From Actinomycetota bacterium (GTDB taxonomy: Bacteria > Actinomycetota > Acidimicrobiia > IMCC26256 > JAENVU01): DNA of 35,087 bases. Position 1 is the first letter of the stretch. Each line of letters starts with the position of its first letter. The position numbers and the translations under genes are program-made. The notes below the pieces were generated by a model. The model searched no databases. It was not told the DNA's origin and saw only the letters and a program-made list of their open reading frames with translations. The DNA lies in contig VGBT01000027.1 of NCBI GenBank assembly GCA_016870395.1, positions 1 through 35,087 on the forward strand, in the 5' to 3' direction. Of this stretch, positions 1,693-27,183 are shown piece by piece.

Positions 1693-1857
1693 CCTGACCG
1701 CACCCGGCGCGCCCGTACCCGGATTCCACAGCCGGAAACCGTCGCGGCTCTCTCGTGCTGTAACGTGAGATACACGCGACATTTTTCGAGCGAAGGTGCC
1801 GATGGGGAGCGCTGGGCGCTGCCAGAGTCCATCGGCGGCGGTGGCGGACACGGGAGC

Positions 1858-3510: not shown

Positions 3511-3532
3511 CCCGGATCTGAGAGGAGCACGA

Positions 3533-4552
3533 ATGCAGCTAGGCATGGTGGGTCTCGGGCGGATGGGTGCCAACCTCGTCCGCCGTCTCATGGACGACGG
3601 CCACGAGTGCGTCGTCTACGACGTGAGCGCCGACGCGGTGCAGGCACTCGTCGGCGAGGGTGCGACGGGTGCCACGACGCTCGAGGACTTCGTCGCGAAG
3701 CTGACGACGCCGCGGGCTGCCTGGGTGATGGTGCCCGCGGCGTTCACCGGCGAGATGGTGGCGAAGCTCGCCGACCTCATGGAGCCCGGCGACATCGTGA
3801 TCGACGGCGGCAACTCGTACTACCGCGACGACGTCGACCGGGCCGCCGCACTCGCGCAGCAGCAGATCCATTACGTCGACTGCGGGACCAGCGGTGGCGT
3901 CTTCGGACTCGAGCGCGGCTTCTGCCTCATGATCGGGGGCGAGGACGAGGTCGTCGCGCACCTCGACCCGATCTTCGCCACGATCGCACCGGGGATCGAC
4001 GCCGCCCCGCGCACCGAGGGGCTCACTGGTGCACCGTCCACGGCGGAGCGCGGCTACCTGCACTGCGGTCCCAACGGCGCGGGGCACTTCGTGAAGATGG
4101 TCCACAACGGGATCGAGTACGGGATCATGGCCGCGTACGCCGAGGGGCTCAACGTGCTGAAGCACGCGAACGCCGGAACGCAGCAGCGCGACGCGGATGC
4201 GGAGACCACGCCCCTGCGCGACCCGCAGTACTACCGGTACGACCTCGACATCCCCGCCGTCGCGGAGGTGTGGCGGCGCGGCAGCGTGGTGTCGTCGTGG
4301 CTGCTCGACCTCACGGCCCACGCGCTGTCGGTGTCGCCCGACCTGTCGGACTTCGCGGGCCGGGTCTCCGACTCGGGCGAGGGGCGCTGGACCATCCATG
4401 CCGCGGTCGACGAGGGGGTACCGGTGCACGTGCTCTCCGCCGCGCTGTTCGACCGGTTCGAGAGTCGGGCCGAGTCGGAGTTCGCCAACCGGCTGCTCTC
4501 GGCGATGCGCAAGGAGTTCGGCGGTCACGACGAGAAGTCGGGGGGTTCCTGA
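3533..4552 (+). CDS. gnd: 6-phosphogluconate dehydrogenase, decarboxylating, short type
   Basis: Oxidises and decarboxylates 6-phosphogluconate to ribulose-5-phosphate. At 339 residues it belongs to the short (about 300-340) class, not the 470-residue E. coli type. The Rossmann motif GLGRMG is at 7-12. The second strand ends in VVYD with Asp30, where NADP-specific enzymes usually have Asn-Arg, so NAD preference is inferred. [21 protein letters not shown] and [21 protein letters not shown] with catalytic Lys188 are intact. A good ribosome site, AGAGGAG, precedes the ATG. The zwf start codon follows its stop after 1 nt, so the two are almost certainly co-translated. Confidence 0.95.
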
Positions 4553-4553
4553 G

Positions 4554-5963
4554 GTGCCGCGGCGGAAGCGGGGGAGCGCCGACGCGCTGTGCTGGTTCGG
4601 CTGCACCGGTGATCTCGGGTACAAGATGACCTTCCCGGCGTTGTACGGGATGGCCCGTCACGGGACGCTTACGCGGCCGATCATCGGCATCGCCCGGGCC
4701 GGCTCGACGCTCGACGACCTCAAAGACCGCGCGCGCGACTCGATCGAGCAATATGGCGGGGGGATCACCGATGCCAAGGCGTTCGACCACCTTGTGCGCG
4801 CGCTGCACTACGTCGACGGCGACTACACGGAGCCCGCCACGTTCGCGGCGCTGAAGCAGCAGCTCGACCGGGTCGGAGCGACCCGCCCGGCGCACTACCT
4901 GGCGATCCCTCCGAGCCTCTTCGGCACGGTGATCGAGGCGCTCGGGACCAGCGGCGCGGCAGAGAACGCGCGCGTCATCGTGGAGAAGCCCTTCGGGCGT
5001 GACCTCGCGTCAGCGCAGGATCTCAACCGGATCGTGCACTCGGTCTTTCCCGAGGACGCGGTCTACCGGATCGACCACTTCCTCGGGAAGGAGGAGGTGC
5101 AGAACCTCCTCTACTTCCGCTTCGCGAACTCGTTCCTTGAGCCGATCTGGAACCGCAACTACGTCTCGAGCGTGCAGATCACGATGGCCGAGGACTTCGG
5201 CGTGCAAGGGCGTGGCCGCTTCTACGAGGAGGTCGGCGCGCTGCGCGACGTGGTGCAGAACCACCTCTTCCAGATGGTCGCGCTGCTCGCCATGGAGCCG
5301 CCCCAGGGCATGGGGGAGCAGGCGCTGCGCGACGCGAAGGAGCGGGTGTTCGGCTCCGTCGAGACCATGCGCGAGCAGGACCTCACCCGCGGCCAGTTCG
5401 AGGGGTACCGCAACGAACCCGGCGTCGCCGCCGAATCCGACGTCGAGACGTACGCCGCTGTCCGGCTGCACGTCGACTCGTGGCGCTGGAACGGCGTCCC
5501 TTGGTACATCCGCGCCGGCAAGGAGCTGCCAGTGCACGCGACCGAGGTGGTCGTGGAGCTGAAGGGAGCTCCCCAGCGGGTGTTCTCCGACTCGGAGCCC
5601 GAGCTCGAGCAGAGCAACTACGTCCGCTTCCGCTTCAACCCCGAGATCGCGATCGCGATCGGGGCGCGGGCCAAGGTGCCCGGTGAGGCGATGGTGGGCG
5701 AGCAGCGCGAGCTCTACCTCTGCAACCAGTTCCCCGACGAGATGTCGCCCTACGAGCGTCTGCTGGGCGACGCGATGAACGGAGAGGCGCTGCTCTTCGC
5801 CCGCGAAGACGGCGTGGAGCAGGCGTGGCGGGTCGTCGACCGGGTCCTGACCCGTCACCATGCGGCGCATCCGTATGCCAAGGGAAGCTGGGGGCCGTGG
5901 GAGGCGAACCGCTTCGTGGAGGCGGTGGGCGGGTGGCGTGACATCGTAGTGTCCACGGTGTGA
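4554..5963 (+). CDS. zwf: Glucose-6-phosphate 1-dehydrogenase
   Basis: Catalyses the first oxidative step of the pentose phosphate pathway, glucose-6-phosphate to 6-phosphogluconolactone. The GTG at 4554, directly after the gnd stop, gives 469 residues, slightly short for the family. The coenzyme loop reads [18 protein letters not shown] (14-31), a variant of the usual GASGDLA-RKL. The active site [10 protein letters not shown] (171-180; Asp174, His175, Lys179) and the catalytic-base region [14 protein letters not shown] with His237 are intact and align with the Asp177/His240 dyad of the Leuconostoc enzyme. Its stop overlaps the rpiA start by 4 nt (GTGTGA). No lactonase gene (pgl) is seen in the cluster, so hydrolysis may be spontaneous or encoded elsewhere. 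Confidence 0.96.
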
Positions 5964-6652
5964 CGGATCGCGACGCGCTGAAGCAGGCCGCCGGCGTGCA
6001 GGCGGCAGAGTGGGTCGACTCGGGGATGGTCGTCGGCCTCGGAACCGGCAGCACGGCGATCCACGCCATCACCGCGGTCGGCGTACGGATCGCCGAGGGG
6101 TCGCTCACGGGCGTCGTTGCGATCCCCACGTCGAAGGCGAGCGCTGACGCGGCCGAGGAGCTCGGGATCCCGCTCGGGTCCCTCGCCGACCACCCCGTCA
6201 TCGATCTCACGATCGACGGTGCCGACGAGGTCGATCCCGACCTGCGTCTGATCAAGGGCGGAGGCGCCGCGCTGCTGCACGAGAAGGTCGTCGCCCAGGC
6301 CAGCCTGCGCGAGGTGATCGTCGTCGACGACGCGAAGTGCTCGGAGCGGCTGGGAACGCGCTGCGCGCTCCCGGTGGAGGTGCTCGCCTTCGGATGGCGA
6401 CCGGAGTCGGAGTACCTCGACGACCTCGGCGCCGACGTCACCCTGCGGCGCGGGCCCTACGACGAGCCGCTCGTCACCGAGGAAGGCAACTGGATCCTCG
6501 ATGCGGCGTTCGGCCCGATCGCGGATCCGGAGCGCCTCGCCGCGCTGCTCGACCGGCGCGCGGGCGTCGTGGCACACGGGCTCTTCCTCGGCCTCGCGAC
6601 GGACCTGCTTGTCGCCGGCGCCGACGGCGTCGAGCACCGACCCGCGCTGTGA
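5960..6652 (+). CDS. rpiA: Ribose-5-phosphate isomerase A
   Basis: Interconverts ribulose-5-phosphate and ribose-5-phosphate, the step after gnd. It has 230 residues, the usual RpiA size. Family motifs in order are VGLGTGSTA (phosphate loop), [12 protein letters not shown] with the catalytic acidic residues, [13 protein letters not shown], and [12 protein letters not shown]. The start is GTG inside the zwf stop (4-nt overlap), which argues for translational coupling. A second, unrelated RpiB-family gene lies at 19288-19722 but lacks key residues, so this is probably the true ribose-phosphate isomerase of the cell. Confidence 0.95.
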
Positions 6653-8257: not shown

Positions 8258-8752
8258 ATGAGCACCGAGCAGCTCCAGCAGGCGTTCGCGAGCACCCGAG
8301 GGGTGTTGGCGCAGGTCACGGCCGCGCAGCTCGACCTCCCCACGCCTTGCCAGTCGTGGGACGTCCGCGGGCTGGTCAACCACATCGTCGGTGGGAGTCG
8401 GTGGTTCGGCGCCTCGGTCGAGGCCGGGAAGTCGGTCGACGAATTTGCGGCCGGCGAATGGGCCGACGGTGACTTCGTCGCCAGCTTCGACGAGGGTGTC
8501 GAGCGCACCGTCGCCGCCTTCGGTGCTCCGGGCGCGCAGGAGAAGATGATCGAGCTGCCCTTCGGCACCTTCCCGGGCGCGGTCTTCATGGGCCTCGCGA
8601 CCAGCGACACCTTCACCCACGGATGGGATCTCGCCCGCGCCACCGGGCAGTCGACCGATCTCGACCCTGCACTCGCCGACGCCCTTCTCGCGCAAGCGCG
8701 GATGTCGATCCCGGAGGCGTTCCGGGGAGCGGACGGCGTGGCGCCGTTCGGC
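8258..8752 (+). pseudogene. TIGR03086 (mycothiol-dependent maleylpyruvate isomerase-like) protein, 3' end lost
   Basis: A strong AGGAGG ribosome site precedes the ATG. The first ~165 residues match the actinobacterial TIGR03086/DinB-like family, in which a helical bundle uses histidines for metal and thiol transfer. Examples are PTPCQSWDVRGLVNHIVGG and TFTHGWDLARATGQ, ending with RMSIPEAFRGADGVAPFG. Immediately after this the family's usual final ~20 residues are absent. The frame instead runs on to 8920 through Ser/Arg/Cys-rich nonsense that overlaps an oxygenase-like sequence in another frame. This is read as a deletion joining two genes at about 8750. It may still be translated as a 220-residue chimera. 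Confidence 0.75.
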
Positions 8753-9132
8753 AGGGACTGCTCGATGCCGCGCGCCGGGTGCACGGAAGACCGATCGTCG
8801 AGCCGCAGATCGCGTTCGTCAACCTGCTCGTCCCCGGCCAGGAGCTCGCAGTGCACACCGACGTTCCCGAATTCCGTGGCGCGAACCGCAAGGTGGTGCC
8901 GCAGTGGCTGCTCGTGGTGATGCACCACTCCGGGTGCTTCGACGCTTGGCGGATGCCGATCGCCACGGGGATCTCGTACTTCTCCGACGACGTGGGCGGC
9001 GCTCTGCTGTATTGGCCCGAAGGCCCCGACGGGCCGCCGGCGCGCCACGCGATCCGCTCCGACACCGCGCTCGTGCTCGACACCGACTCGGTGTTCCACG
9101 GCGTGGACCGCGTCGACGGCGCCGAGGCGGGG
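8752..9132 (+). pseudogene. Fragment of a 2OG-Fe(II) oxygenase-like gene
   Basis: From about 8752 a second frame becomes coding-like without a proper start. It contains EPQIAFVNLLVPGQELAVHTDVPEF, then QWLLVVMHHSGCFDAWRMPIATGISYF, GGALLYWPEGP and ALVLDTDSVFHGVDRV. The HTD motif and the distal HGVDR look like the HxD...H iron site and the adjacent Arg of 2-oxoglutarate/Fe(II) oxygenases. The family assignment is by motif only. Both the N-terminus (expected before GLLDAARRVHGRP) and the C-terminus after HGVDRV are missing. The frame stays open, without a stop, straight into the radical SAM gene, so a fusion product is conceivable but looks accidental. Confidence 0.65.
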
Positions 9133-9210
9133 CCTTCCGGATCGGGACGTTCGACCCGGAGCAGCGCCGGCGGGAATGCCCCGAGGGGCTGGAACCGTTC
9201 GCATGCGCAG

Positions 9211-10304
<1,094 letters not shown>

Positions 10305-10308
<4 letters not shown>

Positions 10309-11714
10309 CCGCCGCCGATCGCCACGTCCGCCCTTCCGCGGTGGCGGGTGCGTTCTACCCGCGTGAGCCCGGCGCCCTGCGCGCCGAGGTCGACGGGCTG
10401 CTGGCCGATGCCCGAGCCCGGGGACTGGAGCTCGCGTCGGTGCCGAGGGCGCTCGTCGTCCCGCACGCCGGCTACGTCTACTCGGGCCCCGTTGCCGCCA
10501 GCGCGTACGCGACCGTCGCGGATGCTGCGGCCGGTATCCGTCGCGTAGTGCTGCTCGGTCCGGCCCACCGGGTCCCGCTGCGCGGCATGGCTGTCCCCTC
10601 GGTGGCCTTGCTGCTGACCCCGCTTGGCGCGGTCGAGGTCGCCGACGACGCGCGCGCGCGGCTCGTCATGCTTGGCCTCGCGATCGTGGACGACGACGCC
10701 CACGCGCTCGAGCACAGTTTCGAGGTGCAGCTCCCGTTCCTGCAGCGTGTTTTTCCCGGTGTGCCGGTCCTGCCGGTCGCGGTGGGCGCTGCGGCCGCGT
10801 CCGACGTCGAGCGCGCGATCGACGCCCTGTGGGACGACGGCACCCTGGTCGTCGTGTCGACCGACCTGAGCCACTACGACACCTACGAGTCGGCGCGCCG
10901 CCACGACGCGCAGACTGCAGATGCGATCCTCCGGCGGGACGGCGACCTGCTGACCGGCACCGACGCCTGCGGCGTCCATGCCTTGCGCGGCCTGCTGCGC
11001 GCGGCGTTGGCGCGCGACCTCGCTGTCCGCGCGCTCGACCTGCGTTCGTCGGGCGACACCGCGGGTCCGCGCGACCAGGTGGTGGGGTACGGCGCCTTCG
11101 TGATCGTCGAGTCGAGCAGCCTCGACGCCGACGACCGTCAGGCGCTGCTGGGCTGCGCGATCGAGCCGGTGGGTGCAGTCCTCCGAGGCGAGGTGCCACG
11201 GCTCCCCGAGCTCGGCCTGCTCCCGCCCCGCCTCCGGTGTCCGGGTGCGGCGTTCACCACCCTGGAGCGTGAGGGCGCGCTGCTCGGTTGCATCGGCACG
11301 CTGCGGGCGGAGGAGCCGTTGGGGCAGGCCGTCGCCCGCCACTCGCTGTCGGCCGCGTTCGCGGATCCTCGACTGCCACCGATCACGGTGGCCGACTTCG
11401 AGGCGATGTCGGTGAAGGTGTCGGTGCTGTCGCCGATGGTGCCCGTGGCCGCGGGCTCGCACGCCGAGCTCGCGGCGGCGCTCGTCCCCGGCGTCGACGG
11501 GCTGCTGGTCGAAGCTCCGCCGGGCGGCGCGACCTTCCTCCCGTCGGTCTGGACGAGCCTGCCGGGGCCGGAGGATTTCCTGGCCGCGCTGTGGCGCAAG
11601 GCCGGCTGGCAGGTGGGGCATTGGCCGCGGGGACTGCGCGCACACCGGTACCGGGCCGCCGAGGTGCACCAATCCGGACCGCGCTCACTCGGGCGGGGCG
11701 CGCGCTCAGCGTGA
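10305..11714 (+). CDS. Memo-AMMECR1 fusion protein (AmmeMemoRadiSam proteins B and A)
   Basis: The GTG at 10305 sits in the overlap GTGA with the radical SAM gene and gives 469 residues. Residues ~8-265 are a Memo domain, related to extradiol-type dioxygenases. The putative metal ligands are conserved: His54 (VPHAGYVYSG), His88 (LLGPAHRVPL) and Cys222 (GTDACGVHAL), matching His49/His81/Cys244 of human MEMO1. Residues ~275-460 are an AMMECR1 domain, with DPRLPPIT and FLPSVWTSLPGPEDFLAALWRKAGW. The most conserved AMMECR1 motif, normally RGCIG, reads LLGCIGTL, so its arginine is replaced by leucine. Fusion plus overlap with the radical SAM gene implies a fixed three-component stoichiometry. The biochemical role is unknown; modification of a protein or small molecule has been speculated for the family. 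Confidence 0.92.
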
Positions 11715-15299: not shown

Positions 15300-16178
15300 T
15301 CATGCCGCGTGAGCGGCGGGTTGGGTGAAGGCGAGTTCGAACTCGACCGGGGTGAGTCTGCCGAGGCCGCGTTGGCGGCGCCGGTGGTTGTAGGTGTGCT
15401 CGATCCAGGTGACGATCGCGTAGCGGAGCTCGGAACGGGTCGCCCAACGCTGCTGGTCGAGCACGTTCTTCTGCAGCAGCGAGAAGAACGACTCCATCGC
15501 CGCGTTGTCACCCGCTGACGCGACCCGTCCCATCGACCCGGTGAGCCCCGCAGCACCGAGAACCGATCGGAATGCCCGTGAGCGGAACTGGCTGCCGCGG
15601 TCGCTGTGAACCACGACCGTGCCCGTCGGGGCCCGTCGTGCGACGGCGGAACGTAGCGCCGTGACGGCGAGCTGGGCGGTCATGCGTTCATCGATCGAGT
15701 AGCCGACGATCCGGTTCGAGAACACGTCCTTGATCGCACACACGTAGAGCTTCCCTTCGGACGTGGGGTGCTCGGTGATGTCGGTCAACCACACGGTGTC
15801 GGGTGCATCAGCTCGGAACTGACGCTTGACCAAGTCGTCATGGACCGCAGGCCCGGGTCGGCCCTTGCCGTTACGGCGTCCCTTGCGGGTCGTGGTCGAC
15901 CACAACCGTTGATCGCGGCACAGCCGCCACACACGCCGCTCACTGAGCTGGTGGCCTGCGGTCTCGAGTTCATCGAAGAGGAGCCGGTACCCGAACTCGG
16001 GGTCCTCGCCGTTGAGGTCGACGAGCGCGTTCGTGACGTAGGCGTCGTCGAGGTCACGGTCCGAGCACGGCTTCGATCGCCACTTGTAGAACGCCTGCGG
16101 GGAGAATCCGAGCACCCCGCACGTCAACCGGATCGGCACACCGTCGGCGGCGAGATCCGCGACGAGCGGGAACATCAT
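15300..16178 (-). CDS. IS3-family transposase OrfB (DDE integrase core)
   Basis: The catalytic half of the IS3 transposase, 292 residues from the ATG at 16178. An HTH_21-like N-terminal part (EDPEFGYRLLFDELE, RRVWRLCRDQRLWS) precedes the rve core. The core's acidic triad is visible as WLTDITEHPTSEGKLY, VVVHSDRGSQFRSRAFR and GDNAAMESFFSLLQKNVL, followed by WIEHTYNHRRRQRGLGRLTPVEFE. Its ATG overlaps the orfA stop (AAAATGATG). The active protein is probably the OrfAB fusion made by -1 frameshifting, with OrfB alone also possible. No disabling mutation was seen. Confidence 0.93.
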   Translation of the reverse strand: MMFPLVADLAADGVPIRLTCGVLGFSPQAFYKWRSKPCSDRDLDDAYVTNALVDLNGEDPEFGYRLLFDELETAGHQLSERRVWRLCRDQRLWSTTTRKGRRNGKGRPGPAVHDDLVKRQFRADAPDTVWLTDITEHPTSEGKLYVCAIKDVFSNRIVGYSIDERMTAQLAVTALRSAVARRAPTGTVVVHSDRGSQFRSRAFRSVLGAAGLTGSMGRVASAGDNAAMESFFSLLQKNVLDQQRWATRSELRYAIVTWIEHTYNHRRRQRGLGRLTPVEFELAFTQPAAHAA

Positions 16179-16468
16179 TTTGGGGCTGCGTCCTTCGCGA
16201 AGTACGCGGTTGCCCGCCGCAGGATCTCGACCTCCTGCTCGAGACGACGCTTGTCGCGACGGAGCTGCACGAGCTCGGACTGCTCCGACGTGGTGAGCCC
16301 ATCGCTGACACCGTCGTCGATGTCGGCCTGGCGCACCCAACGGCGCACCGACTCGACCGACACATCGAAGTCGTGAGCGACCTCGGCAAGAGTCAGCTCA
16401 CCGCGACGTGCGACGTTCGCGACGTCACGCTTGAACTCTTCGGGGAACTTCTTCGGCATGGGAAACAT
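16175..16468 (-). CDS. IS3-family transposase OrfA (HTH)
   Basis: This 97-residue DNA-binding half starts MFPMPKKFPEEFKRDVANVARRG. The helix-turn-helix TLAEVAHDFDVSVESVRRWVRQ (26-47) is followed by a leucine-zipper-like coiled coil, SELVQLRRDKRRLEQEVEILRRATAYF, used for dimerisation. It ends KDAAPK, where the slippery heptamer lies. MPKKF at 16459 is an alternative start. Confidence 0.92.
   Translation of the reverse strand: MFPMPKKFPEEFKRDVANVARRGELTLAEVAHDFDVSVESVRRWVRQADIDDGVSDGLTTSEQSELVQLRRDKRRLEQEVEILRRATAYFAKDAAPK
16178..16184 (-). promoter_or_regulatory. -1 programmed frameshift heptamer C CCA AAA
   Basis: Read on the minus strand in the orfA frame, the sequence is GCC CCA AAA TGA. 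The heptamer C CCA AAA fits X-XXY-YYZ, and slipping back one base gives CCC AAA ATG, which is the orfB frame. The orfA stop codon follows the heptamer directly. Confidence 0.75.
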
Positions 16469-17126: not shown

Positions 17127-18566
17127 CTATGCGACGCCGAGGCGGTCCAGGTAGACCGCCCACTGGGCCTCGTCGAACGCCTGGTCCGCCGCGCCCGGCG
17201 CTCCTCTTGCGGCGGACAATCCGCCGGTGGTCCCACCGGCGCACAAGGTCGAGACCTGGCCGACGTCGAGCGCGGCCGGGTCGAACCACAGGTCGGGTGA
17301 GAACGGTTGGGCCATGAGGCTGGCACCGATGTTGTTCGCGTGCTGGTCGCGCTGGGTGAGGAACCATCCGGCGCCGGGGCCCCCGGGGCCTTCGGGCGGC
17401 GCGCCGAGGAAGCGCCACTCGAGGAAGCGCAGGATCGACGTGTGGTCGTACACGCGCCGGTCGACGAAGCCGGGGCGCGCGAACGGCGACGCCATCACCG
17501 TGGGCACCCGGAACCCCGCCTGCGAGAAGTCGTCCTGGTCGTTCGTGCTCGTGCGGTCGTCGGCGAGGTGCGGCGGGGCGACGTGGTCGAAGAAGCCGCC
17601 CCACTCGTCGTAGGTGACGAGGAACACGCCCCGCTCCCACTGCGGCGACTGCGCGAACGCCTGGAACACATCGCGCATGAAGCCCTGGCCGGCGCGGACG
17701 TCGGCGAGCGGGTGGTCGTCGGTGCGGTTCTCGCCCACGAACGACGGGTCGAGGAACACCACGTTGGGCAGCGTGCCTGCCGCGCAGTCCGCGTAGAACT
17801 CCGCGATCGGGCGGTTGAACGGGTTCAGGCGCTCACCCCACAGGAAGGTGACCGGCAGGTCCGAGTAGTAGTACCGGGCCGGCACCCCGGCGGCGCCGAG
17901 CCGGTCCCAGATCGTCGGCCAGCTGAACCCACCTTCGGCGATCGGCAGGTAGTTGCTCTTCACGCCGCCCGACTGCGCCGAGTGCAGGTACTCGCGGTTC
18001 GGATTGGTCGGACCGAGCACCGAGCAGTGGTAGCTGTCGAAGGTGGTGAAGCGCTTGGTCAGCCGGGCGCTGAAGGCCAGGTCGGGGGCGTTGTAGTAGC
18101 CGAGCGCGAACTCGTCGTTGCCCGATCCCGGCGCGAGGAAGCCTTGGTCGCGCTGGACCCGACCCGTGGTCCACGAGTGGCCCGGGTCCCCGAAGTCGCA
18201 GCCGCGCCAGGGGTTGGTGATCTGGTCCCAGGCGAACAGGTAGCGGGTGTCGACGGGCCCGTCCGGGCCGGCGTAGGTCTGGTGCTGGTTGCCATCGACG
18301 CCGAACAGCGCGCCGTAGCGGCTGCGGCCCGCTTCGAGGTACTGCTGGTCAGACGCGAGCCAGCCGAGCCAGTGGTCGAAGGAGCGGTTTTCCATCATCA
18401 GGACGACGACGGTGTCGACCGGGCAGTCCGACGCGAGGCCGTCGAGCAGCGACTGTCCGGGCTCGAAGCCCGGTGGGTACAGCCACCGGCAGCCCGGGAT
18501 CGCGGTGCTCGCCGCAAGCGCACCGCCGACGAGGCCCGCGCGCTTGAGGAACGTCCGACGATCCAT
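17127..18566 (-). CDS. Tat-exported phosphoesterase (phospholipase C/acid phosphatase family)
   Basis: This 479-residue protein starts MDRRTFLKRAGLVGGALAAS, a clear twin-arginine signal (RRTFLK), with a following cysteine (IPGCRW) that may make it a lipoprotein. The body matches the PF04185 phosphoesterase family of bacterial phospholipases C and acid phosphatases. Examples are VVVLMMENRSFDHWLGWL (catalytic-region ENRSFDH), GPTNPNREY, FLDPSFVGENRTDDHP, FLVTYDEWGGFFDHVAPP and RVPTVMASPFARPG. It acts outside the membrane and probably releases phosphate from phospholipids or other esters. The ATG at 18566 is preceded by GGGAGG; a start 30 nt upstream would only lengthen the signal n-region. Its stop codon is immediately followed by the truncated island gene. 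Confidence 0.92.
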   Translation of the reverse strand: MDRRTFLKRAGLVGGALAASTAIPGCRWLYPPGFEPGQSLLDGLASDCPVDTVVVLMMENRSFDHWLGWLASDQQYLEAGRSRYGALFGVDGNQHQTYAGPDGPVDTRYLFAWDQITNPWRGCDFGDPGHSWTTGRVQRDQGFLAPGSGNDEFALGYYNAPDLAFSARLTKRFTTFDSYHCSVLGPTNPNREYLHSAQSGGVKSNYLPIAEGGFSWPTIWDRLGAAGVPARYYYSDLPVTFLWGERLNPFNRPIAEFYADCAAGTLPNVVFLDPSFVGENRTDDHPLADVRAGQGFMRDVFQAFAQSPQWERGVFLVTYDEWGGFFDHVAPPHLADDRTSTNDQDDFSQAGFRVPTVMASPFARPGFVDRRVYDHTSILRFLEWRFLGAPPEGPGGPGAGWFLTQRDQHANNIGASLMAQPFSPDLWFDPAALDVGQVSTLCAGGTTGGLSAARGAPGAADQAFDEAQWAVYLDRLGVA

Positions 18567-18619
18567 CGCCCCCCGCCTCCCAGCCGAATCACGCATTGTT
18601 GCTGGAATCGGACGGGCTT

Positions 18620-18649: not shown

Positions 18650-19288
18650 GTGCCCGTTCCCGACCTCGCCGCGGCCTCCGTGTTCCTCGATTTCGACGGC
18701 ACCATCAGCACCACCGACGTGGGCCTGCACCTCCTCGAGCGTCTGGCCCCGCCGGAGTGGAAGGCGATCGACGCCGAGTACGACGCGGGCGAGACCGGCA
18801 GCCGGGTCTGCCTCCTCGACGAGTGGGACCTGCTCCCGCACGACGCCGACCTCCTGCGCTCGGTGGCCTTCGAGGTGCCGATCGACCCCGATCTCGAAGC
18901 CCTTGTTGCTGGGCTGCTCGCCGCCGGCTCCGAGGTGGTCGTGCTGTCCGACGGCTTCGGCTTCTATGCGCACGACGTGTGCGACGGGCTCGGAATCCCG
19001 GTGCTCACCAACGCGGTCGACTGGGGCACGGGGGCGTTGACGTTCCCGCACGAGGACCGGTGCTGCGCGTGCTCGAGCTGCGGCACCTGCAAGCAAGCTC
19101 CGGTCAAGGAGGCCGCGCGGCGTGGCCGAACCACCGTCGTGGTCGGCGACGGCACCAGCGACCGCAAGGCCGCGCTCCTCGCCGACGTGGTGTTCGCCAA
19201 GGGCTCGCTCGCGGCCTGGTGCGCGGCGAACGGAGTCGTCCACCACCGCTTCGAGTGCCTGGCCGATGTCGGTGAGGCACTGCTTTGA
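18650..19288 (+). CDS. MtnX-like HAD-family phosphatase
   Basis: This 212-residue HAD hydrolase has motif I FLDFDGTI (Asp14 nucleophile, Asp16), motif II VVVLSDGFG and motif III/IV VVVGDGTSDRKAALLADVVFAKG. A cysteine-dense insert, C138-C139-A-C141-S-S-C144-G-T-C147-K, aligns with the CxCC-type segment of Bacillus MtnX (methionine salvage phosphatase) and may bind zinc. The GTG at 18650 is chosen for its fit to the promoter layout. It overlaps the next gene, an RpiB-family protein, by one base (TGATG). The pair probably acts on one sugar phosphate. No other methionine-salvage genes are present, so an MtnX role is not implied. Confidence 0.82.
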   Translation: MPVPDLAAASVFLDFDGTISTTDVGLHLLERLAPPEWKAIDAEYDAGETGSRVCLLDEWDLLPHDADLLRSVAFEVPIDPDLEALVAGLLAAGSEVVVLSDGFGFYAHDVCDGLGIPVLTNAVDWGTGALTFPHEDRCCACSSCGTCKQAPVKEAARRGRTTVVVGDGTSDRKAALLADVVFAKGSLAAWCAANGVVHHRFECLADVGEALL

Positions 19289-19722
19289 TGAGGGTGGTGA
19301 TGGGCTCGGACGAGCGGACGCCGCTCACCGACGCGGTGGCCGAGGACCTGCGCGGTCGAGGATGCGAGGTGCTCCTCGTCGGGCCGGTGGCGAGGACGCC
19401 CGCCGACGACGCGAAGCAGTGGGCGCAGGTCGGTCGCGAGGTCGGCGAGGCGGTCGCCACCGGCGCGGCGGAGACCGGAGTGCTGTTCTGCTGGACGGGC
19501 ACCGGCGCGTCGATCGCGGCGAACAAGGTGGCCGGCGTTCGGGCCGCGCTGTGTACCGACGCGGCCACCGCCGCCGGCGCGCGCCGCTGGAACGATGCCA
19601 ACGTGCTGGTGATGAGTTTGCGGCTGACGACGCCGGAGCTCGCCCGCGAGATGCTCACCGTGTGGTTCGACACCGAGCCCGACCCCGGCGAGGCTGAGAA
19701 CGTGGCCCGACTCGAGGGCTAA
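19288..19722 (+). CDS. RpiB/LacAB-family sugar-phosphate isomerase-like protein, atypical
   Basis: This 144-residue member of the RpiB/LacA/LacB fold contains GVLFCWTGTGASIAANKVAGVRAAL, equivalent to the CGTG-SIAANK active-site loop, with Cys68 retained. The N-terminal DH pair of RpiB is Asp8-Glu9 here. The catalytic histidine of the RQHNDTNVL segment (His99 in E. coli RpiB) is Trp101 (ARRWNDANVL). The fold and thiol are kept, but two histidines used by ribose-phosphate isomerase are gone. Since rpiA is present at 5960, this protein likely handles a different substrate. It is translationally coupled to the MtnX-like phosphatase. Confidence 0.85.
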   Translation: MRVVMGSDERTPLTDAVAEDLRGRGCEVLLVGPVARTPADDAKQWAQVGREVGEAVATGAAETGVLFCWTGTGASIAANKVAGVRAALCTDAATAAGARRWNDANVLVMSLRLTTPELAREMLTVWFDTEPDPGEAENVARLEG

Positions 19723-19733: not shown

Positions 19734-20024
19734 GTGGCGACCTACGCGATGCTCTCGACGCTTGGCCCCGGCGGGTGGGCGACGCTGCGGGAGAAGCCGG
19801 AGCGCATGCACGAGGTGACCCGTGAGGTCGAGGCGATGGGCCTCAAGGTGATCGCCCAGTACGCCCTGCTCGGCCAGTGGGACTTCCTCAACATCATCGA
19901 GGCTCCCGACGAGAAGGCCATGGCCCGCTGCGCGACGGCGCTCGCGGCGCGAGGCACGATGCGCACCACGACGCTCCAGGCCATCCCCATCGACGAGCTG
20001 GTCGCCGCGTTGGAGGACGGTTAG
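19734..20024 (+). CDS. GYD domain-containing protein
   Basis: This 96-residue alpha/beta protein of the GYD family (ferredoxin-like small domains) reads YAMLSTLGPGGWATLREKPERM, EVEAMGLKVIAQYALLGQWDFLNIIEAPD and TMRTTTLQAIPIDEL. The family motif that is usually GxYD is LGQWDF here. The function of the family is not known. Its stop TAG (20022-20024) interlocks with the stop TAA of the opposite-strand gene in the shared sequence TTAG. Confidence 0.85.
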   Translation: MATYAMLSTLGPGGWATLREKPERMHEVTREVEAMGLKVIAQYALLGQWDFLNIIEAPDEKAMARCATALAARGTMRTTTLQAIPIDELVAALEDG

Positions 20025-21427: not shown

Positions 21428-22075
21428 GTGGCGACGGCCGGGGCTTCCCCTGACGTTCCGAGGGTCGCTGCCCGCGCGCGCCTGCGGGAGGTGGCACGGG
21501 CGGGGGCGCCGGTGGTGTTGGCCCGTGAACGGTGCCTGGAGGTGCCCGGCCCGCTCGGCGAGGTGGTGCCCGGGCTCCGGCGTGGTGCGGTGGTGGCGGT
21601 GGAGGGCCCACCCTCCGCGGGTGCGACCTCGCTCGCGCTCGGGCTGGTTGCCGCGGCGAGCGCGGCCCGGGAGTGGGCGGCCGCGGTCGATGGCTCGGGC
21701 ACGCTCGGGGGGCTCGCGGCAATCGCGGCCGGTGTGGACCTCGCGCGCTTCGCCGTGGTCCGCGACGTGCCGGGTGACCGGTGGGCGGCGGTGGTCGCCG
21801 CGCTGCTCGACGGGATGAGCGTGGTGCTCGCCGAGGTGCCGCGCGGGGTACGGGTGGCCGACGCGCGTCGGCTGGTCGCCCGCGCGCGCGAGCGGGACAC
21901 GGTGCTCGTCACGTTGGGGGCGTGGCCGGCCGCGGCCACGTTGCGCCTGCACGCGGAGGGCGGCGTGTGGACGGGGCTCGGTGCCGGTGACGGTGTGCTC
22001 ACCGCGCGCGAGCTCGCCGTGCGGGTCGAAGGACCGGGGGCGCCCGTTCGCGGTCACGTCGCGATCGCGGTCTAG
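21428..22075 (+). CDS. imuA: ImuA' RecA-like mutasome accessory protein
   Basis: This 215-residue protein sits in the ImuA' position of the LexA-controlled imuA'-imuB-dnaE2 cassette. It has a RecA-fold core: VVPGLRRGAVVAVEGPPSAGATSLALGL (a Walker-A-like loop that lacks the Lys), then VDLARFAVVRDVPGDRWAAVVAALLDGMSVVLAEVP (Walker-B-like strand) and DTVLVTLGAWP. ImuA' proteins bind ImuB and are needed for damage-induced mutagenesis by DnaE2. The sequence is highly Ala/Val/Arg-biased and diverged, so identity leans on context. Six nucleotides separate its stop from imuB. Confidence 0.8.
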   Translation: MATAGASPDVPRVAARARLREVARAGAPVVLARERCLEVPGPLGEVVPGLRRGAVVAVEGPPSAGATSLALGLVAAASAAREWAAAVDGSGTLGGLAAIAAGVDLARFAVVRDVPGDRWAAVVAALLDGMSVVLAEVPRGVRVADARRLVARARERDTVLVTLGAWPAAATLRLHAEGGVWTGLGAGDGVLTARELAVRVEGPGAPVRGHVAIAV

Positions 22076-22080
22076 CAAGG

Positions 22081-23643
22081 ATGGCCGCGCGCACGCTCTG
22101 CCTGTGGTGTCCGGACTGGCCGGTGGTCGCGGCCCGTCTGCGCGGCGACGGCCCGACCGACGCGCCGGTCGTCGTGCTGGCGCAGGGACGCGTGCTCGCG
22201 TGCTCGGCGGAGGCGCGAGCACACGACGTGACGATCGGCCTGCGCCGCCGTGAGGTCGAGGTCCGGGCCCCGGGCGTGGTGGTGCTCGAGGTCGATCCGG
22301 CCGGCGACGCGCGCGCGTTCGAGCCGGTCGCGCGCGCGGTGGAGGCACTCGCGCCGCGCCTCGCGCTGGAGCGGCCCGGTCTGCTGTCGTTCCCGACGCG
22401 TGGCCCGTCGCGCTACTTCGGTGGCGACGAGGCACTCGTGGCGCGCGTGCTCGACGTGGTGCGTGACACGGCGGTGCCGGATGCCCGGGTGGGCGTTGCC
22501 GACGGGGTGTTCGCGGCCCGCCTCGCGGCCCGCCGCGGGGTGCTCGTGCCCGTGGACGCCACGCCGACGTTCCTCGCGCCGTGGCCCGTCGGCGCGCTGG
22601 GCGACGAGGACCTCGCGTCGTTGCTGTGCCGCCTCGGCCTGCGCACCCTCGGGGATTTCGCGGCGCTGCCGCCGGGGGCGGTGCTCGCCCGGTTCGGGGC
22701 GAGGGGGCTCGGGGTGCATCGCCTGGCCCGCGGGGAGGACGAGCACCCGCCTGCGCTCACCACCCCGCCGCCCGACCTGGTGGAGGTCTGCGAGCTGGAT
22801 CCGCCCGCGGCGCGGGTGGATGCCGCCGCGTTCGTGGCGAAGGCGCTCGCCGACCGCCTGCTCGAGCGGCTCGCGGCCGTGGGCCTCGCGTGCACGCACG
22901 TGGTGGTGGAGGCCGAGACCGAGCACGGCGAGCACCTGGCGCGCGGCTGGCGCCACGAAGGGGCGTTGACCGCGGCCACGCTGGCCGAGCGGGTGCGCTG
23001 GCAGCTCGACGGGTGGCTGACTGAGACCGGTGGGCTCACCGGTGGCCTCGCGCTCTTGCGTCTGGTGCCCGAGCAGGTGATCCCGGCGACCGGTCGCCAG
23101 CTCGGGTTCTGGGGCGGCGACGCGGCCGCCGCCGACCGCGCCGCGCGCGTGCTGGCGCGGGTGCAGGGCATCCTCGGGCCCGAGCACGTGGTCACCGCGG
23201 TGCCCCAGGGCGGGCGGACCCCGCTCGAGCGGGTGCGCTGGGTGCCATGGGGTGAGCCGCGTGAGGCGCAGCGACCGGTCGATGCGGTCGCGGGGCCGGT
23301 GAGCACGGAGACCCCCGACTGGCCGGGGACGGTCCCGGGCCCGTCGCCGGCGCGGGTGTTCGCGGTCGCTCCCCGCGCGGTGTTGCTCGACGCCGCCGGG
23401 GAGGCGGTCACCGTCTCGAGCCGGGGGGAGCCGAGCGCGCCACCGGCGCGGCTGGTGAGCCCGGTGCTGCCGGGTGGTGGCGGCGAGGTCGGCGCGTGGG
23501 CGGGGCCGTGGGCCCAGGACGTGCGCTGGTGGGACCGCCGGGCGCGGGCGCGCCGCAGCTACTGGCAGGTGGTGGTGGGGGAGACCGCGTGCCTGGTGCG
23601 GGTCGAGCGCGGCGAAGCCGCGATCGAGGCCCTCTACGACTGA
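22081..23643 (+). CDS. imuB: ImuB, catalytically inactive Y-family polymerase homologue
   Basis: This 520-residue adaptor tethers DnaE2 to the sliding clamp during SOS mutagenesis. It has the Y-family layout, but the first metal-binding motif reads LCLWCPDW where active polymerases have DMD, and no SxDE motif is seen, consistent with inactivity. The family signature RGPSRYFGGDEAL and the finger/little-finger parts (GALGDEDLASLLCRLGLRTLGDFAALP) are present. QLGFWGG at 340-346 is a good beta-clamp-binding motif. The C-terminal tail (DVRWWDRRARARRSYWQVV) is typical of ImuB. AAGG precedes the ATG. It is co-transcribed with imuA'. Confidence 0.95.
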   Translation: MAARTLCLWCPDWPVVAARLRGDGPTDAPVVVLAQGRVLACSAEARAHDVTIGLRRREVEVRAPGVVVLEVDPAGDARAFEPVARAVEALAPRLALERPGLLSFPTRGPSRYFGGDEALVARVLDVVRDTAVPDARVGVADGVFAARLAARRGVLVPVDATPTFLAPWPVGALGDEDLASLLCRLGLRTLGDFAALPPGAVLARFGARGLGVHRLARGEDEHPPALTTPPPDLVEVCELDPPAARVDAAAFVAKALADRLLERLAAVGLACTHVVVEAETEHGEHLARGWRHEGALTAATLAERVRWQLDGWLTETGGLTGGLALLRLVPEQVIPATGRQLGFWGGDAAAADRAARVLARVQGILGPEHVVTAVPQGGRTPLERVRWVPWGEPREAQRPVDAVAGPVSTETPDWPGTVPGPSPARVFAVAPRAVLLDAAGEAVTVSSRGEPSAPPARLVSPVLPGGGGEVGAWAGPWAQDVRWWDRRARARRSYWQVVVGETACLVRVERGEAAIEALYD

Positions 23644-23649
23644 CCACCG

Positions 23650-23704
23650 CCCGATCTCGGCACGCTGGAGGCCCCATAGGGGCCTGAATCGTTCCGAGAT
23701 CGGG
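23650..23704. repeat. Nested palindrome between imuB and dnaE2
   Basis: CCCGATCTCGG (23650-23660) and CCGAGATCGGG (23694-23704) enclose a second hairpin AGGCCCC-ATA-GGGGCCT (23669-23685). Lying 6 nt after imuB and 31 nt before the dnaE2 LexA box, it probably insulates the two transcription units, although it has no T-tract. Confidence 0.7.
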
Positions 23705-23735
23705 GCTCGGGTGACCGCCCGCCAGGCCATTGCGG

Positions 23736-23755
23736 TACCGAACAGGTGTTCGGTA
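23736..23755. promoter_or_regulatory. LexA (SOS) box of dnaE2
   Basis: TACCGAACAGGTGTTCGGTA is a perfect 20-bp palindrome around CGAAC-AGGT-GTTCG. Its last two bases are the first two of the TAGGGT -10 box (23754-23759), which stands 7 nt before the GTG at 23767. The layout mirrors that of imuA'. Confidence 0.9.
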
Positions 23756-23759
23756 GGGT
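23754..23759 (+). promoter_or_regulatory. -10 box of dnaE2 overlapping the LexA box
   Basis: TAGGGT lies 7 nt before the GTG at 23767; no ribosome site follows, so a leaderless mRNA is expected. Confidence 0.6.
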
Positions 23760-23766
23760 CCCGCTC

Positions 23767-26700
23767 GTGGGTGCGTATGCGGAGCTGCACTGCCACACCA
23801 ACTTCTCCTTCCTCGACGGCGCGAGCCACGCCGAGGAGCTGGCCGAGGAGGCCCACCGGCTCGGGCTCGCGGCCCTCGCGGTCACCGACCACGACGGTCT
23901 CTACGGCGTCGTGCGCTTCGCCGAGGCCGCCCGCCCGCTCGCGCTCCCCACCGTGTTCGGCGCGGAGCTCACGCTCGGGGCGACGAGGCCGTCGAACGGC
24001 ATGGCCGATCCGTCGGGGGAGCACGTGCTCGTCCTCGCCGAGGGCCCGGCCGGCTACGCCGCGCTCGCGCGGGCCATCAGCGAGGCCCAGCTGCGCGGCG
24101 AGAAGGGCAGCCCGGACCTCACGTTGGAGCAACTGGCCGAGGTGCGGCCACGGCCGGTGCGGAGCGGCGGCCGGAGCAGCCCGCAGGGTGCGCAGGCCGC
24201 TCGCAGGAGCAGCGAGCTTGCGAGCGCGACCGGTAGCTGGTTCGTCCTCACCGGATGCCGCAAGGGTGCGGTGCCGCGCGCGCTCGTACGCGACGGCCCG
24301 TCGGCGGCCGAGCAGGAGCTCGCGCGCCTGGTGCACGCGTTCGGCCGCGACCGCGTGCTCGTCGAGCTGTGGGACCACGGCGACCCGCTCGACCGACCGC
24401 GCAACGACGCGCTGGCGCGCCTCGCGGCACGCGCCGACGTCGAGGTGATCGCGACGAACAACGTGCACTACGCGACGCCCGCGCAGCACCGGCTCGCCAC
24501 CGCCCTCGCCGCGATCCGCAGCCGGCGCAGCCTCGACGAGATGGACGGCTGGCTCCCGGCCACACCGTTCGCGCACCTGCGCAGCCCGGCCGAGCAGGCC
24601 CGTCGCTTTGCCCGCTACCCCGGCGCGGTGGAGCGGACCGTGGAGGTCGCGGCCGCATGCGCCTTCGACCTGAAGGTCGCGGTGCCGGATCTGCCCGACT
24701 ACCCGGTGCCCGAGGGTCACACCGACGCGAGCTGGCTCCGGGAGCTCACCCGCCGCGGCGCGTCGGCGTACTACCCGATCACCCACCCGCACCACGAGCA
24801 GGCGATGCGCCAGATCGACCACGAGCTCGGGGTGATCGAGCACCTCGGCTTCCCGGGCTACTTTCTCCTGCTGCACGACATCGTCGAGTTCTGCCGCACC
24901 CACGACATCTACTGCCAGGGCCGGGGGAGCGCGGCGAACAGCGCGGTCTGCTACGCGCTCGGGGTCACCAAGGCCGACGCGGTCGCGCTCGGCCTGCTCT
25001 TCGAGCGCTTCCTCTCCCCCGAGCGTGATGGTCCCCCCGACATCGATCTCGACATCGAGCACCAGCGCCGCGAGGAGGTGATCCAGTACGTGTACGACCG
25101 CTACGGGCGGGATCGTGCCGCGCAGGTCGCGAACGTGGTCACGTACCGGCCGCGCTCGGCGCTGCGCGAGATGGCGAAGGTCGCGGGGCTCTCACCCGGT
25201 CATGCCGACGCCCTCACCCGCTGGATCGACCGCTGGGCATCTCGTGAGGACCCGTACGCGGAGCTCCGGACGGAAGCGGCGGCGGGCGCAGGCGGAGCCC
25301 CCTCGCAGCGAGCGCGCCCAGCAGAGGAGGGCGCGCCTCCGGTCCCGGAGCTCGTGCTGGAGCTCGCGGAGGCGGTGCAGGACTTCCCCCGGCACCTCGG
25401 CATCCACTCGGGCGGGATGGTGATGGCCGATCGGCCGCTCGTGGAGTGCTGTCCGGTGGAGTGGGCCCGCATGGAGGGCCGATCGGTCCTCCAGTGGGAC
25501 AAGGACGACTGCGCGGCTGCGGGGCTGGTGAAGTTCGACCTGCTCGGGCTCGGGATGCTCACGATGCTGCACCTCGCCGTCGACCTGATCCGGGAGCACG
25601 AGGGCCTCGAGGTCGACCTCGCCACCATCCCCCAGGAGCCGGAGGTCTACGCGCTCCTGAGCGCGGCCGACACCGTCGGCGTGTTCCAGGTGGAGAGCCG
25701 CGCGCAGATGGCGACGCTGCCCCGGCTCCGACCCGAGCACTTCTACGACCTGGTGGTGGAGGTGGCCCTCATCCGCCCCGGCCCGATCCAGGGCGGCTCC
25801 GTGCATCCCTACCTCCGTCGGCGCAACGGCGAGGAGGAGGTCACCTACCCCCACCCGCTCGTGGAGCCGTGCCTGCGCAAGACCCTCGGCGTGCCGCTGT
25901 TCCAGGAGCAGCTGATGCAGATGGCGATCGACGCCGCTGGCTTCAGCCCCGGCGAGGCCGACCAGCTGCGCCAGGCGATGGGCTCGAAGCGCTCGAAAGC
26001 CCGCATGGCGCGCATGCACGACCGGCTCATGGAAGGCATGGCTGCACGGGGTATCACCTCCGAGGTGGCCGCGGAGATCGCGCACAAGCTCGAGGCGTTC
26101 GCGAGCTTCGGGTTCCCCGAGAGTCACTCGGTGAGCTTCGCCTACCTCGTGTACGCGAGCGCCTGGGTGAAGCTGCACCACCCGGCCGAGTTCGTGGCTG
26201 CGCTGTGCAACGCGCAGCCGATGGGCTTCTACTCGCCGCACACGCTGGTGCGCGACGCGCGCCGGCACGGGGTGGAGATCCTGAGTCCGTGCGTGGCGCA
26301 GTCGCGTCGAGACTGCACGCTCGAGCCTCGTTCGGGCGCCGCGGGACCGATCGGTCGACCGCTGCCCGGATGGCACGCGTACCCGTCGGTGCACGCGGTG
26401 CGCATCGGGCTGCGCTACGTCCGGGGTCTTTCGGGCTCACTGCTCGATCGCATCGACGCCGAACGCGACGTCGGTCCGTTCCACGACCTCGAAGACTTCG
26501 CCCGACGCACGGAGGCACCGGTCGACGCGCTGGAGGCGCTGGCCACTGCCGGCGCGTTCGCGTGCTTCGGGGTGGATCGTCGCGCCGGGCTCTGGGCCGC
26601 GGGTGCGTTGCGCGACGCGCGTCCGGGTCGCAGCGCGGGCACCGTGGCGCCGCGGCTGCCGGGCACCGCGGTGGGGGTGGAGGCTCCGGCGCTGCCGGGG

Positions 26701-27183
26701 ATGAGCGAGGTGGAGGAGACGGCGGCCGACCTGTGGTCGACCGGCATGGCGCCCGGGGTGCACCCCATCGAGCACGTGCGCGCCGAGCTCGATGCGCGCG
26801 GGGTGTTCACCGCGGCTCGGCTGCGGGAGGCCACGCCCCGGCAGGTGGTGGAGGTGGCGGGGGTCGTCACCCACCGCCAGCAGCCCGAAACCGCGAAGGG
26901 GACGGTGTTCGTCAACCTCGAGGACGAGACCGGGTTGGTGAACGTGATCTGCCCGCCCGGGGTGTGGAAGCGCTACCGCAAGGTTGCCCGGATCGCCCCC
27001 GCGCTGTATGTCCGCGGGGTGCTCGAGCGCCACCAGGGGGTGGTCAACGTCCTCGCGCACCGCATCGAAGCGCTGCCCCTGCACGCGCTCCTCCGCGCTC
27101 GCACCTACGGGGCGGGGGGATCCGGCGGGGCGGGGGGATCCGGCACCCACGCCGAGGCGCTGCCTTCACGGGACTTCCGCTGA
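23767..27183 (+). CDS. dnaE2: Error-prone DNA polymerase III alpha subunit DnaE2 (ImuC)
   Basis: This 1138-residue C-family polymerase does translesion synthesis under SOS control. Order of parts: PHP domain (ELHCHTNFSFLDGAS from residue 6; HDGLYGVVRFAEA), palm with GRGSAANSAVCYALG and the acidic motif PDIDLDIEH (425-429), fingers with RQAMGSKRSKARMARM and FGFPESHSVSFAYLVYAS, HhH region, and a C-terminal OB fold (VVTHRQQPETAKGTVFVNLEDETGLVNVICPP). It ends SRDFR, as DnaE2 proteins typically do. Compared with the family it has two low-complexity inserts (about residues 129-153 and 502-526) and a tandem Gly/Ser linker near the end. The GTG at 23767 was chosen for the LexA/-10 spacing and the family N-terminus. 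Confidence 0.95.
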   Translation: MGAYAELHCHTNFSFLDGASHAEELAEEAHRLGLAALAVTDHDGLYGVVRFAEAARPLALPTVFGAELTLGATRPSNGMADPSGEHVLVLAEGPAGYAALARAISEAQLRGEKGSPDLTLEQLAEVRPRPVRSGGRSSPQGAQAARRSSELASATGSWFVLTGCRKGAVPRALVRDGPSAAEQELARLVHAFGRDRVLVELWDHGDPLDRPRNDALARLAARADVEVIATNNVHYATPAQHRLATALAAIRSRRSLDEMDGWLPATPFAHLRSPAEQARRFARYPGAVERTVEVAAACAFDLKVAVPDLPDYPVPEGHTDASWLRELTRRGASAYYPITHPHHEQAMRQIDHELGVIEHLGFPGYFLLLHDIVEFCRTHDIYCQGRGSAANSAVCYALGVTKADAVALGLLFERFLSPERDGPPDIDLDIEHQRREEVIQYVYDRYGRDRAAQVANVVTYRPRSALREMAKVAGLSPGHADALTRWIDRWASREDPYAELRTEAAAGAGGAPSQRARPAEEGAPPVPELVLELAEAVQDFPRHLGIHSGGMVMADRPLVECCPVEWARMEGRSVLQWDKDDCAAAGLVKFDLLGLGMLTMLHLAVDLIREHEGLEVDLATIPQEPEVYALLSAADTVGVFQVESRAQMATLPRLRPEHFYDLVVEVALIRPGPIQGGSVHPYLRRRNGEEEVTYPHPLVEPCLRKTLGVPLFQEQLMQMAIDAAGFSPGEADQLRQAMGSKRSKARMARMHDRLMEGMAARGITSEVAAEIAHKLEAFASFGFPESHSVSFAYLVYASAWVKLHHPAEFVAALCNAQPMGFYSPHTLVRDARRHGVEILSPCVAQSRRDCTLEPRSGAAGPIGRPLPGWHAYPSVHAVRIGLRYVRGLSGSLLDRIDAERDVGPFHDLEDFARRTEAPVDALEALATAGAFACFGVDRRAGLWAAGALRDARPGRSAGTVAPRLPGTAVGVEAPALPGMSEVEETAADLWSTGMAPGVHPIEHVRAELDARGVFTAARLREATPRQVVEVAGVVTHRQQPETAKGTVFVNLEDETGLVNVICPPGVWKRYRKVARIAPALYVRGVLERHQGVVNVLAHRIEALPLHALLRARTYGAGGSGGAGGSGTHAEALPSRDFR
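24150..24235. repeat. Palindrome-rich in-frame insert in dnaE2 (first)
   Basis: This segment encodes RSGGRSSPQGAQAARRSSEL and flanking residues, which family members lack. It contains GCTCGCA...TGCGAGC inverted repeats and a GCAGCGAGC 9-mer also found in the second insert but read in another frame. Boundaries are approximate. Confidence 0.5.
25266..25345. repeat. Palindrome-rich in-frame insert in dnaE2 (second)
   Basis: It encodes the Ala/Gly/Pro/Arg-rich stretch after AELRTE and before PVPELV. GCGCGCCC (25312-25319) and GGGCGCGC (25329-25336) are perfect inverted repeats; GCAGCGAGC is shared with the first insert. Boundaries are approximate. Confidence 0.5.
27109..27144. repeat. 18-bp tandem duplication near the dnaE2 3' end
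   Basis: Two exact consecutive copies of GGGGCGGGGGGATCCGGC encode a doubled GAGGSG linker between the OB fold and the terminal SRDFR. It probably arose by slippage; copy number may vary. Confidence 0.85.

What the first reader, a model, noticed from the sequence alone, without database searches (positions are those of the whole stretch)
18650..19722. Coupled MtnX-like phosphatase and RpiB-like protein lacking catalytic histidines
The RpiB-like protein keeps the active-site Cys68 and SIAANK loop but has Asp-Glu for Asp-His at 8-9 and Trp101 for the catalytic His99 equivalent. It overlaps by one base a HAD phosphatase with a CC-x-C-x2-C-x2-C insert. With rpiA elsewhere, the pair may form an undescribed sugar-phosphate isomerase/phosphatase route or a damage-repair pair.
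Basis: partly seen in the sequence, partly recalled or inferred. Interest (0 to 1): 0.6.

Follow-up and report, generated by a model that had tools for sequence, protein, structure and literature searches.

The report
Unnamed RpiB-family sugar isomerase variant
The gene encodes a member of a widespread, unnamed group of sugar isomerases, found in bacteria and archaea, that has swapped the usual substrate-handling histidines for a tryptophan and an acidic or other non-histidine residue and so probably acts on a different small sugar; the phosphatase gene next to it is a local neighbour rather than a fixed partner.

Summary
The sequence observation is right. An MtnX-like HAD phosphatase (18650-19288) and an RpiB-fold protein (19288-19722) overlap by one base. 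The second keeps Asp8, Cys68, Thr70 and Asn102 but has Glu9 and Trp101 where canonical RpiB has His. This is not a one-off. It belongs to a clade (SH-aLRT 100) found in Actinomycetota, Chloroflexota, Vulcanimicrobiota, Bacteroidota and Thermoproteota. In 109 members position 9 is never His, 45 is always Trp, 101 is Trp in 108 (Tyr in one), and the phosphate-binding Arg-His-x-x-Arg tail is replaced by an acidic one. No curated equivalog model claims it. The pairing is not supported. In the order, the two genes are adjacent in all 14 genomes that have both, but 14 genomes have only the HAD and 10 only the RpiB variant (Fisher p = 0.29). None of 80 loci from named genomes has the HAD nearby. The HAD's cysteine cluster aligns with that of MtnX. 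Losing both histidines has a precedent: rhizobial erythrose-4-phosphate isomerases lost them too. Best reading: a genuine aldose-ketose isomerase for a small open-chain, or not 5-phosphorylated, substrate. The substrate is unknown. It is a new variant of a known kind.

The parts
18650..19288 (+). MtnX-like HAD-IB phosphatase, 212 aa, catalytic motifs intact, CC-x-C-x2-C-x2-C insert
   Evidence: insert conserved in 27 homologues
19288..19722 (+). RpiB-fold isomerase variant (RpiB'), 144 aa: D8-E9, W45, C68-W69-T70, W101
   Evidence: AlphaFold2 model pLDDT 97.8 matching RpiB structures
19734..20024 (+). GYD-domain protein, directly downstream; commonest neighbour of RpiB' (24 loci)
   Evidence: PF08734, 87.7 bits
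20310..20975 (+). RNase HII (rnhB), anchor of the syntenic block
   Evidence: synteny
17127..18596 (-). divergent phosphoesterase-family gene upstream
   Evidence: PF04185, 229.9 bits; synteny in the family and one other genome
5960..6652 (+). rpiA, the ordinary ribose-5-phosphate isomerase of this genome
   Evidence: NF001924 238.7 bits, above cut-off

Best explanation
RpiB' is a working aldose-ketose isomerase of the RpiB fold that has changed substrate. Cys68 takes the proton and Thr70, the Gly71-Gly73 loop, Asp8 and Asn102 hold the enediol, as in RpiB. The ring-opening His (99/102 in characterised enzymes) is a Trp, the Asp-His pair is Asp-nonHis, and the phosphate-clamping Arg-His-x-x-Arg tail is acidic. 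So the substrate is most likely open-chain (C4 or smaller, or unable to form a furanose) and not held by a terminal 5-phosphate. RpiA supplies the normal R5P isomerase activity. Shown: the conserved clade, the substitutions, purifying selection, the fold, and the independent gain and loss relative to the HAD. Inferred: that it is catalytic, and the substrate class. The HAD is an independent MtnX-superfamily phosphatase, not methionine-salvage MtnX, because mtnA is absent; sharing a transcript with RpiB' in this lineage is possible but not an obligate pathway.
For: Catalytic set D8, C68, G71, T72, G73, N79 invariant, and T70 and N102 near-invariant (>=90%), in 61 diverse members. In 109 members: position 9 E67 M23 D12 S3 L2, no His; W45 109/109; C68 109/109; W101 108/109; acid at 135 in 105/109, against Y45, H9, H101 and H135/R138 in 18 canonical paralogues; mean net charge of the tail -2.9 against +1.2; Arg112 retained in 102. 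Clade support 100. Published roles: His102 ring opening, Cys69 base, His11/Arg137/Arg141 phosphate (PMC4783025; PMC3755991). The Rhizobium erythritol-locus EryI homologue has Ser at both His positions, and EryI acts on D-erythrose-4-P (PMC5992420). RpiB-family DhuI acts on a non-phosphorylated uronate (PMC12838403). mtnA absent.
Against: No activity or ligand is known. H99N in E. coli RpiB only slows kcat 26-fold, so weak R5P activity is possible. Arg112, equivalent to a phosphate-contacting Arg113, is kept. Operon partners differ between lineages, so none points firmly to one substrate. A regulatory, non-catalytic sugar-binding role is not excluded.
Confidence: 0.6

Rival explanations
1. RpiB' is a tetrose-4-phosphate isomerase working like EryI/DerI (D-erythrose-4-P to D-erythrulose-4-P), salvaging or balancing stray tetrose phosphate. 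(A narrower form of the best explanation.)
For: EryI/DerI-group members show the same double His loss (S/D at 9, S at 101) and lack the Arg-His tail; their substrate is a C4 phosphate in a pathway ending at erythrose-4-P. Arg112 retained in both.
Against: RpiB' does not branch within the EryI/DerI group. It scores 88 bits on the DerI model against a 240-bit cut-off. Its tail carries an acid where DerI has Ser. No erythritol or dihydroxyacetone-kinase genes were recognised next to it in the loci inspected.
Confidence: 0.2
2. RpiB' isomerises an unphosphorylated sugar or keto-acid, as DhuI does; the Trp45/69/101 set and the acidic tail hold a neutral or amino sugar. (Another narrower form of the best explanation.)
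For: Charge reversal of the tail and conserved aromatic residues. An AraA-like isomerase gene lies 5-16 nt upstream in four Thermoproteia genomes; within Thermoproteia the two families co-occur (27 observed, 13 expected; p = 5e-7). A GH38 mannosidase gene is divergent upstream in about 16 loci. DhuI precedent.
Against: The co-occurrence is not corrected for phylogeny. The neighbours differ by lineage. Arg112 is kept.
Confidence: 0.35
3. HAD and RpiB' form a dedicated isomerase-phosphatase route or damage-repair pair.
For: One-base overlap; adjacent in 14 of 14 genomes of the order that have both.
Against: No excess co-occurrence in the order (p = 0.29); HAD kept without RpiB' in 14 genomes, two of the same genus, with the block otherwise intact; never adjacent outside the order.
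Confidence: 0.1
4. RpiB' is an ordinary R5P isomerase tolerant of the substitutions.
For: The H99N mutant of E. coli RpiB retains some activity (PMC3755991); same fold.
Against: H102N of Leishmania RpiB is dead (PMC4783025); the phosphate-binding tail is also lost; rpiA is present; a second RpiB match coexists in 16 carriers.
Confidence: 0.08

Closest known systems
Canonical RpiB (ribose-5-phosphate isomerase B; C. thermocellum 3HE8, E. coli 2VVR)
   Same: Fold (TM 0.87-0.89), catalytic Cys, Asp8, anion-hole glycines, SIAANK, Asn-Asp-Ala-Asn
   Different: No His at 9 or 101, Trp45 for Tyr, Trp/Tyr69 for Gly, no Arg-His-x-x-Arg tail
EryI/DerI D-erythrulose-4-phosphate isomerases (NF051858)
   Same: Lack both histidines and the Arg-His tail; keep Cys, Thr, Arg112
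   Different: Ser at 101, Tyr45, Gly69; separate branch; 88 bits against a cut-off of 240
Coccidioides immitis RpiB (3QD5/3SDW)
   Same: Ring-opening His replaced (by Ser), acidic residue at the second His, few phosphate contacts; authors suspect shorter-chain substrates (PMC3212906)
   Different: Only 24% identity; Ser, not Trp; a single Lys retained for phosphate
DhuI (4U8F), RpiB-family uronate ketol-isomerase
   Same: RpiB fold acting on a non-phosphorylated substrate
   Different: About 18-20% identity, about 70 residues longer
MtnX / MtnX-like HAD-IB phosphatases (TIGR01489, 2FEA)
   Same: For the HAD partner: fold, catalytic motifs, Cys-rich stretch before the conserved CK
   Different: Below family cut-offs; no mtnA in the genome

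Membership tests
LacAB_rpiB (PF02502) superfamily | Profile score above gathering cut-off; RpiB fold | tested here: met
   116.8 bits against 24.7; TM 0.89 to 3HE8
RpiB (NCBIfam TIGR01120 / NF004051) | Score above curated cut-off | tested here: not met
   90.9 against 138.65; 103.6 against 135
RpiB | Ring-opening His (99/102) and Asp-His pair | tested here: not met
   W101 in 108/109 members; no His at 9
RpiB | Catalytic Cys (or the Glu/Ser alternative of the actinobacterial type) | tested here: met
   C68 in 109/109
RpiB | R5P isomerase activity | not testable with these tools
   needs an assay
EryI/DerI (NF051858) | Score above equivalog cut-off | tested here: not met
   88 against 240 bits
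EryI/DerI (NF051858) | Groups with EryI/DerI in a tree | tested here: not met
   RpiB' clade separate with support 100 (quick tree, few columns)
MtnX (TIGR03333), for the HAD | Score above cut-off | tested here: not met
   68.1 against 303.2
MtnX (TIGR03333), for the HAD | Methionine salvage context (mtnA) | tested here: not met
   no mtnA in the genome; controls positive
Conserved HAD-RpiB' two-gene system | Co-occurrence beyond chance and conserved adjacency | tested here: not met
   p = 0.29 in the order; 0/80 named loci

The most novel reading that the evidence does not exclude
RpiB' is an unrecognised enzyme family shared by Bacteria and Archaea, with an activity not yet assigned to the RpiB fold: isomerisation of an unphosphorylated or amino-bearing open-chain sugar in a Trp-lined, acidic pocket.
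Probability: 0.3. Interest if true: 0.6.

Novelty: new variant of a known kind. Interest (0 to 1): 0.4.

Why it matters
NCBIfam gives this subfamily only the generic RpiB/LacA/LacB name, or ribose 5-phosphate isomerase, in many bacteria and archaea, and that name probably misstates its substrate. It occurs in about 10% of sampled Actinomycetota genomes and 26% of sampled Thermoproteia genomes, so one assay would correct annotation in many genomes. It would also show how an isomerase fold drops ring opening and phosphate binding, as EryI/DerI enzymes appear to have done separately.

Tried and rejected
HAD as MtnX of methionine salvage: rejected, no mtnA. HAD Cys cluster as a new metal site: not needed, it aligns with the Cys stretch of 2FEA; metal binding untested. 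A conserved partner of RpiB' through neighbours of 109 loci: only GYD/RNase HII/GH38 in the window's class and an AraA-like gene in four archaeal genomes recur; nothing universal. A published description: searches for RpiB subfamilies and similarity networks found none, though only open-licence papers are held. The AraA-like protein in viral contigs: none.

Full report
What is there. Two genes on the + strand, an MtnX-like HAD phosphatase (18650-19288) and an RpiB-fold protein (19288-19722), share one base in TGATG. Pfam places the second in LacAB_rpiB (116.8 bits). NCBIfam gives it only the generic RpiB/LacA/LacB subfamily (91.3 bits against 88.3), and every equivalog (RpiB, DerI, LacA, LacB, actinobacterial RPI) stays far below its cut-off. 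The genome has rpiA at 5960-6652 and no other RpiB. Nearest named relatives suggest an Acidimicrobiia-like actinobacterium (inference).

A conserved subfamily. Among 100 relatives, 29 genomes including the window's carry a close homologue (57-82% identity), and 16 of these also carry a second, weaker match. Paralogues fetched from such genomes mostly keep DHAG, HNDANV and GGRHxRR. A scan of named genomes found further members in Streptomyces, Nocardia, Actinoplanes, Solirubrobacterales, Chloroflexota, Eremiobacterota, Bacteroidota and Thermoproteota. In a tree with canonical RpiB the group is one side of a branch with SH-aLRT 100, and stays so when EryI/DerI-type proteins are added. These are quick trees on about 150 columns, so inner order is unsure. 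dN/dS is about 0.2.

What changed. Across 109 members against 18 canonical paralogues: position 9 is E, M, D, S or L, never His; Tyr45 became Trp (109/109); Gly69 became Trp or Tyr; His101 became Trp (108/109, Tyr in one); the tail His135 and Arg138 became acid (105/109) and mostly Asn; mean net charge of the tail goes from +1.2 to -2.9. What stays: Asp8, Cys68, Thr70, Gly71/73, Asn102, Arg112. In characterised enzymes Cys69 is the base, His102 opens the furanose ring, and His11, Arg137 and Arg141 hold phosphate (PMC4783025; PMC3755991). Catalysis therefore looks intact, while ring opening and 5-phosphate binding look lost. AlphaFold2 gives a confident RpiB fold (pLDDT 97.8; TM 0.89 to 3HE8).

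Precedents. Loss of these histidines is not unique. The Rhizobium erythritol-locus EryI homologue and its relatives have Ser or Asp at 9 and Ser at 101; EryI isomerises D-erythrose-4-phosphate (PMC5992420), which cannot form a furanose because O4 is phosphorylated (general chemistry). C. immitis RpiB has Ser for the ring-opening His and Asp at the other, and its authors suspected a shorter substrate (PMC3212906). DhuI, of the same family, acts on a non-phosphorylated uronate (PMC12838403). These support a changed, acyclic or unphosphorylated substrate; they do not say which.

The pair. Within the order (58 genomes) both genes occur in 14, HAD alone in 14, RpiB' alone in 10, neither in 20 (p = 0.29). 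Where both exist they are adjacent. Several HAD-only genomes show the same block with RpiB', GYD or both missing between HAD and RNase HII. Two same-genus genomes read HAD then RNase HII directly. Loci with and without the HAD share the divergent GH38 gene upstream. Outside the order the eight sampled genomes with both have them on separate contigs or far apart, and none of 80 named loci holds the HAD. The widest test (100 relatives) gives p = 0.006, and the phylum sample p = 0.025, but both mix in lineages lacking either gene.

The HAD. Catalytic motifs are intact, and C139, C141, C144 and C147 are invariant in 27 homologues. The region aligns with the Cys-rich stretch of the solved MtnX 2FEA. 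mtnA is absent, so it is not methionine-salvage MtnX. Its substrate is unknown.

Other leads. A GYD-domain gene follows RpiB' in 24 loci. In four Thermoproteia genomes an AraA-like gene lies 5-16 nt upstream, and the families co-occur there (27 against 13 expected), uncorrected for phylogeny.

Verdict. A real, unnamed RpiB subfamily with a remodelled active site: a new variant of a known kind. The coupled-pathway idea is not supported.

Noticed in passing
window 19734-20024: GYD-domain gene is the commonest neighbour of RpiB' (24 loci), yet it and RpiB' are lost independently in some relatives.
   Followed up: partly
L070:6713-7984, L090:1547-2818: AraA-like isomerase gene directly upstream of RpiB' in four Thermoproteia genomes; the two families co-occur in that class without phylogenetic correction.
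   Followed up: partly
L013:2049-3416 and about 15 other loci: A GH38 alpha-mannosidase gene is divergent upstream of the HAD/RpiB' block in many relatives; the window has a phosphoesterase-family gene there instead.
   Followed up: partly
L144 (G091), L083, L104, L109: A sub-branch of RpiB' in Micromonosporaceae, Pseudonocardiaceae and others has Ala for Cys89 and GTAIAANK; L083 has a tyrosine-phosphatase-family gene just upstream.
   Followed up: no
window 8623-11714: Radical SAM gene followed by a fused Memo-AMMECR1 gene (AmmeMemoRadiSam system B and A in one protein).
   Followed up: partly
window 22081-27183: ImuB-like Y-family polymerase gene followed by a DnaE2-like DNA polymerase III alpha gene; the upstream ORF 21428-22075 may be ImuA but had no Pfam match.
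   Followed up: partly
window 1765-6652: Pentose-phosphate cluster pgi, gnd-like, zwf, rpiA.
   Followed up: partly
window 15300-16468: IS3-type transposase (rve domain) with a likely upstream helper ORF on the - strand, not far upstream of the finding.
   Followed up: no
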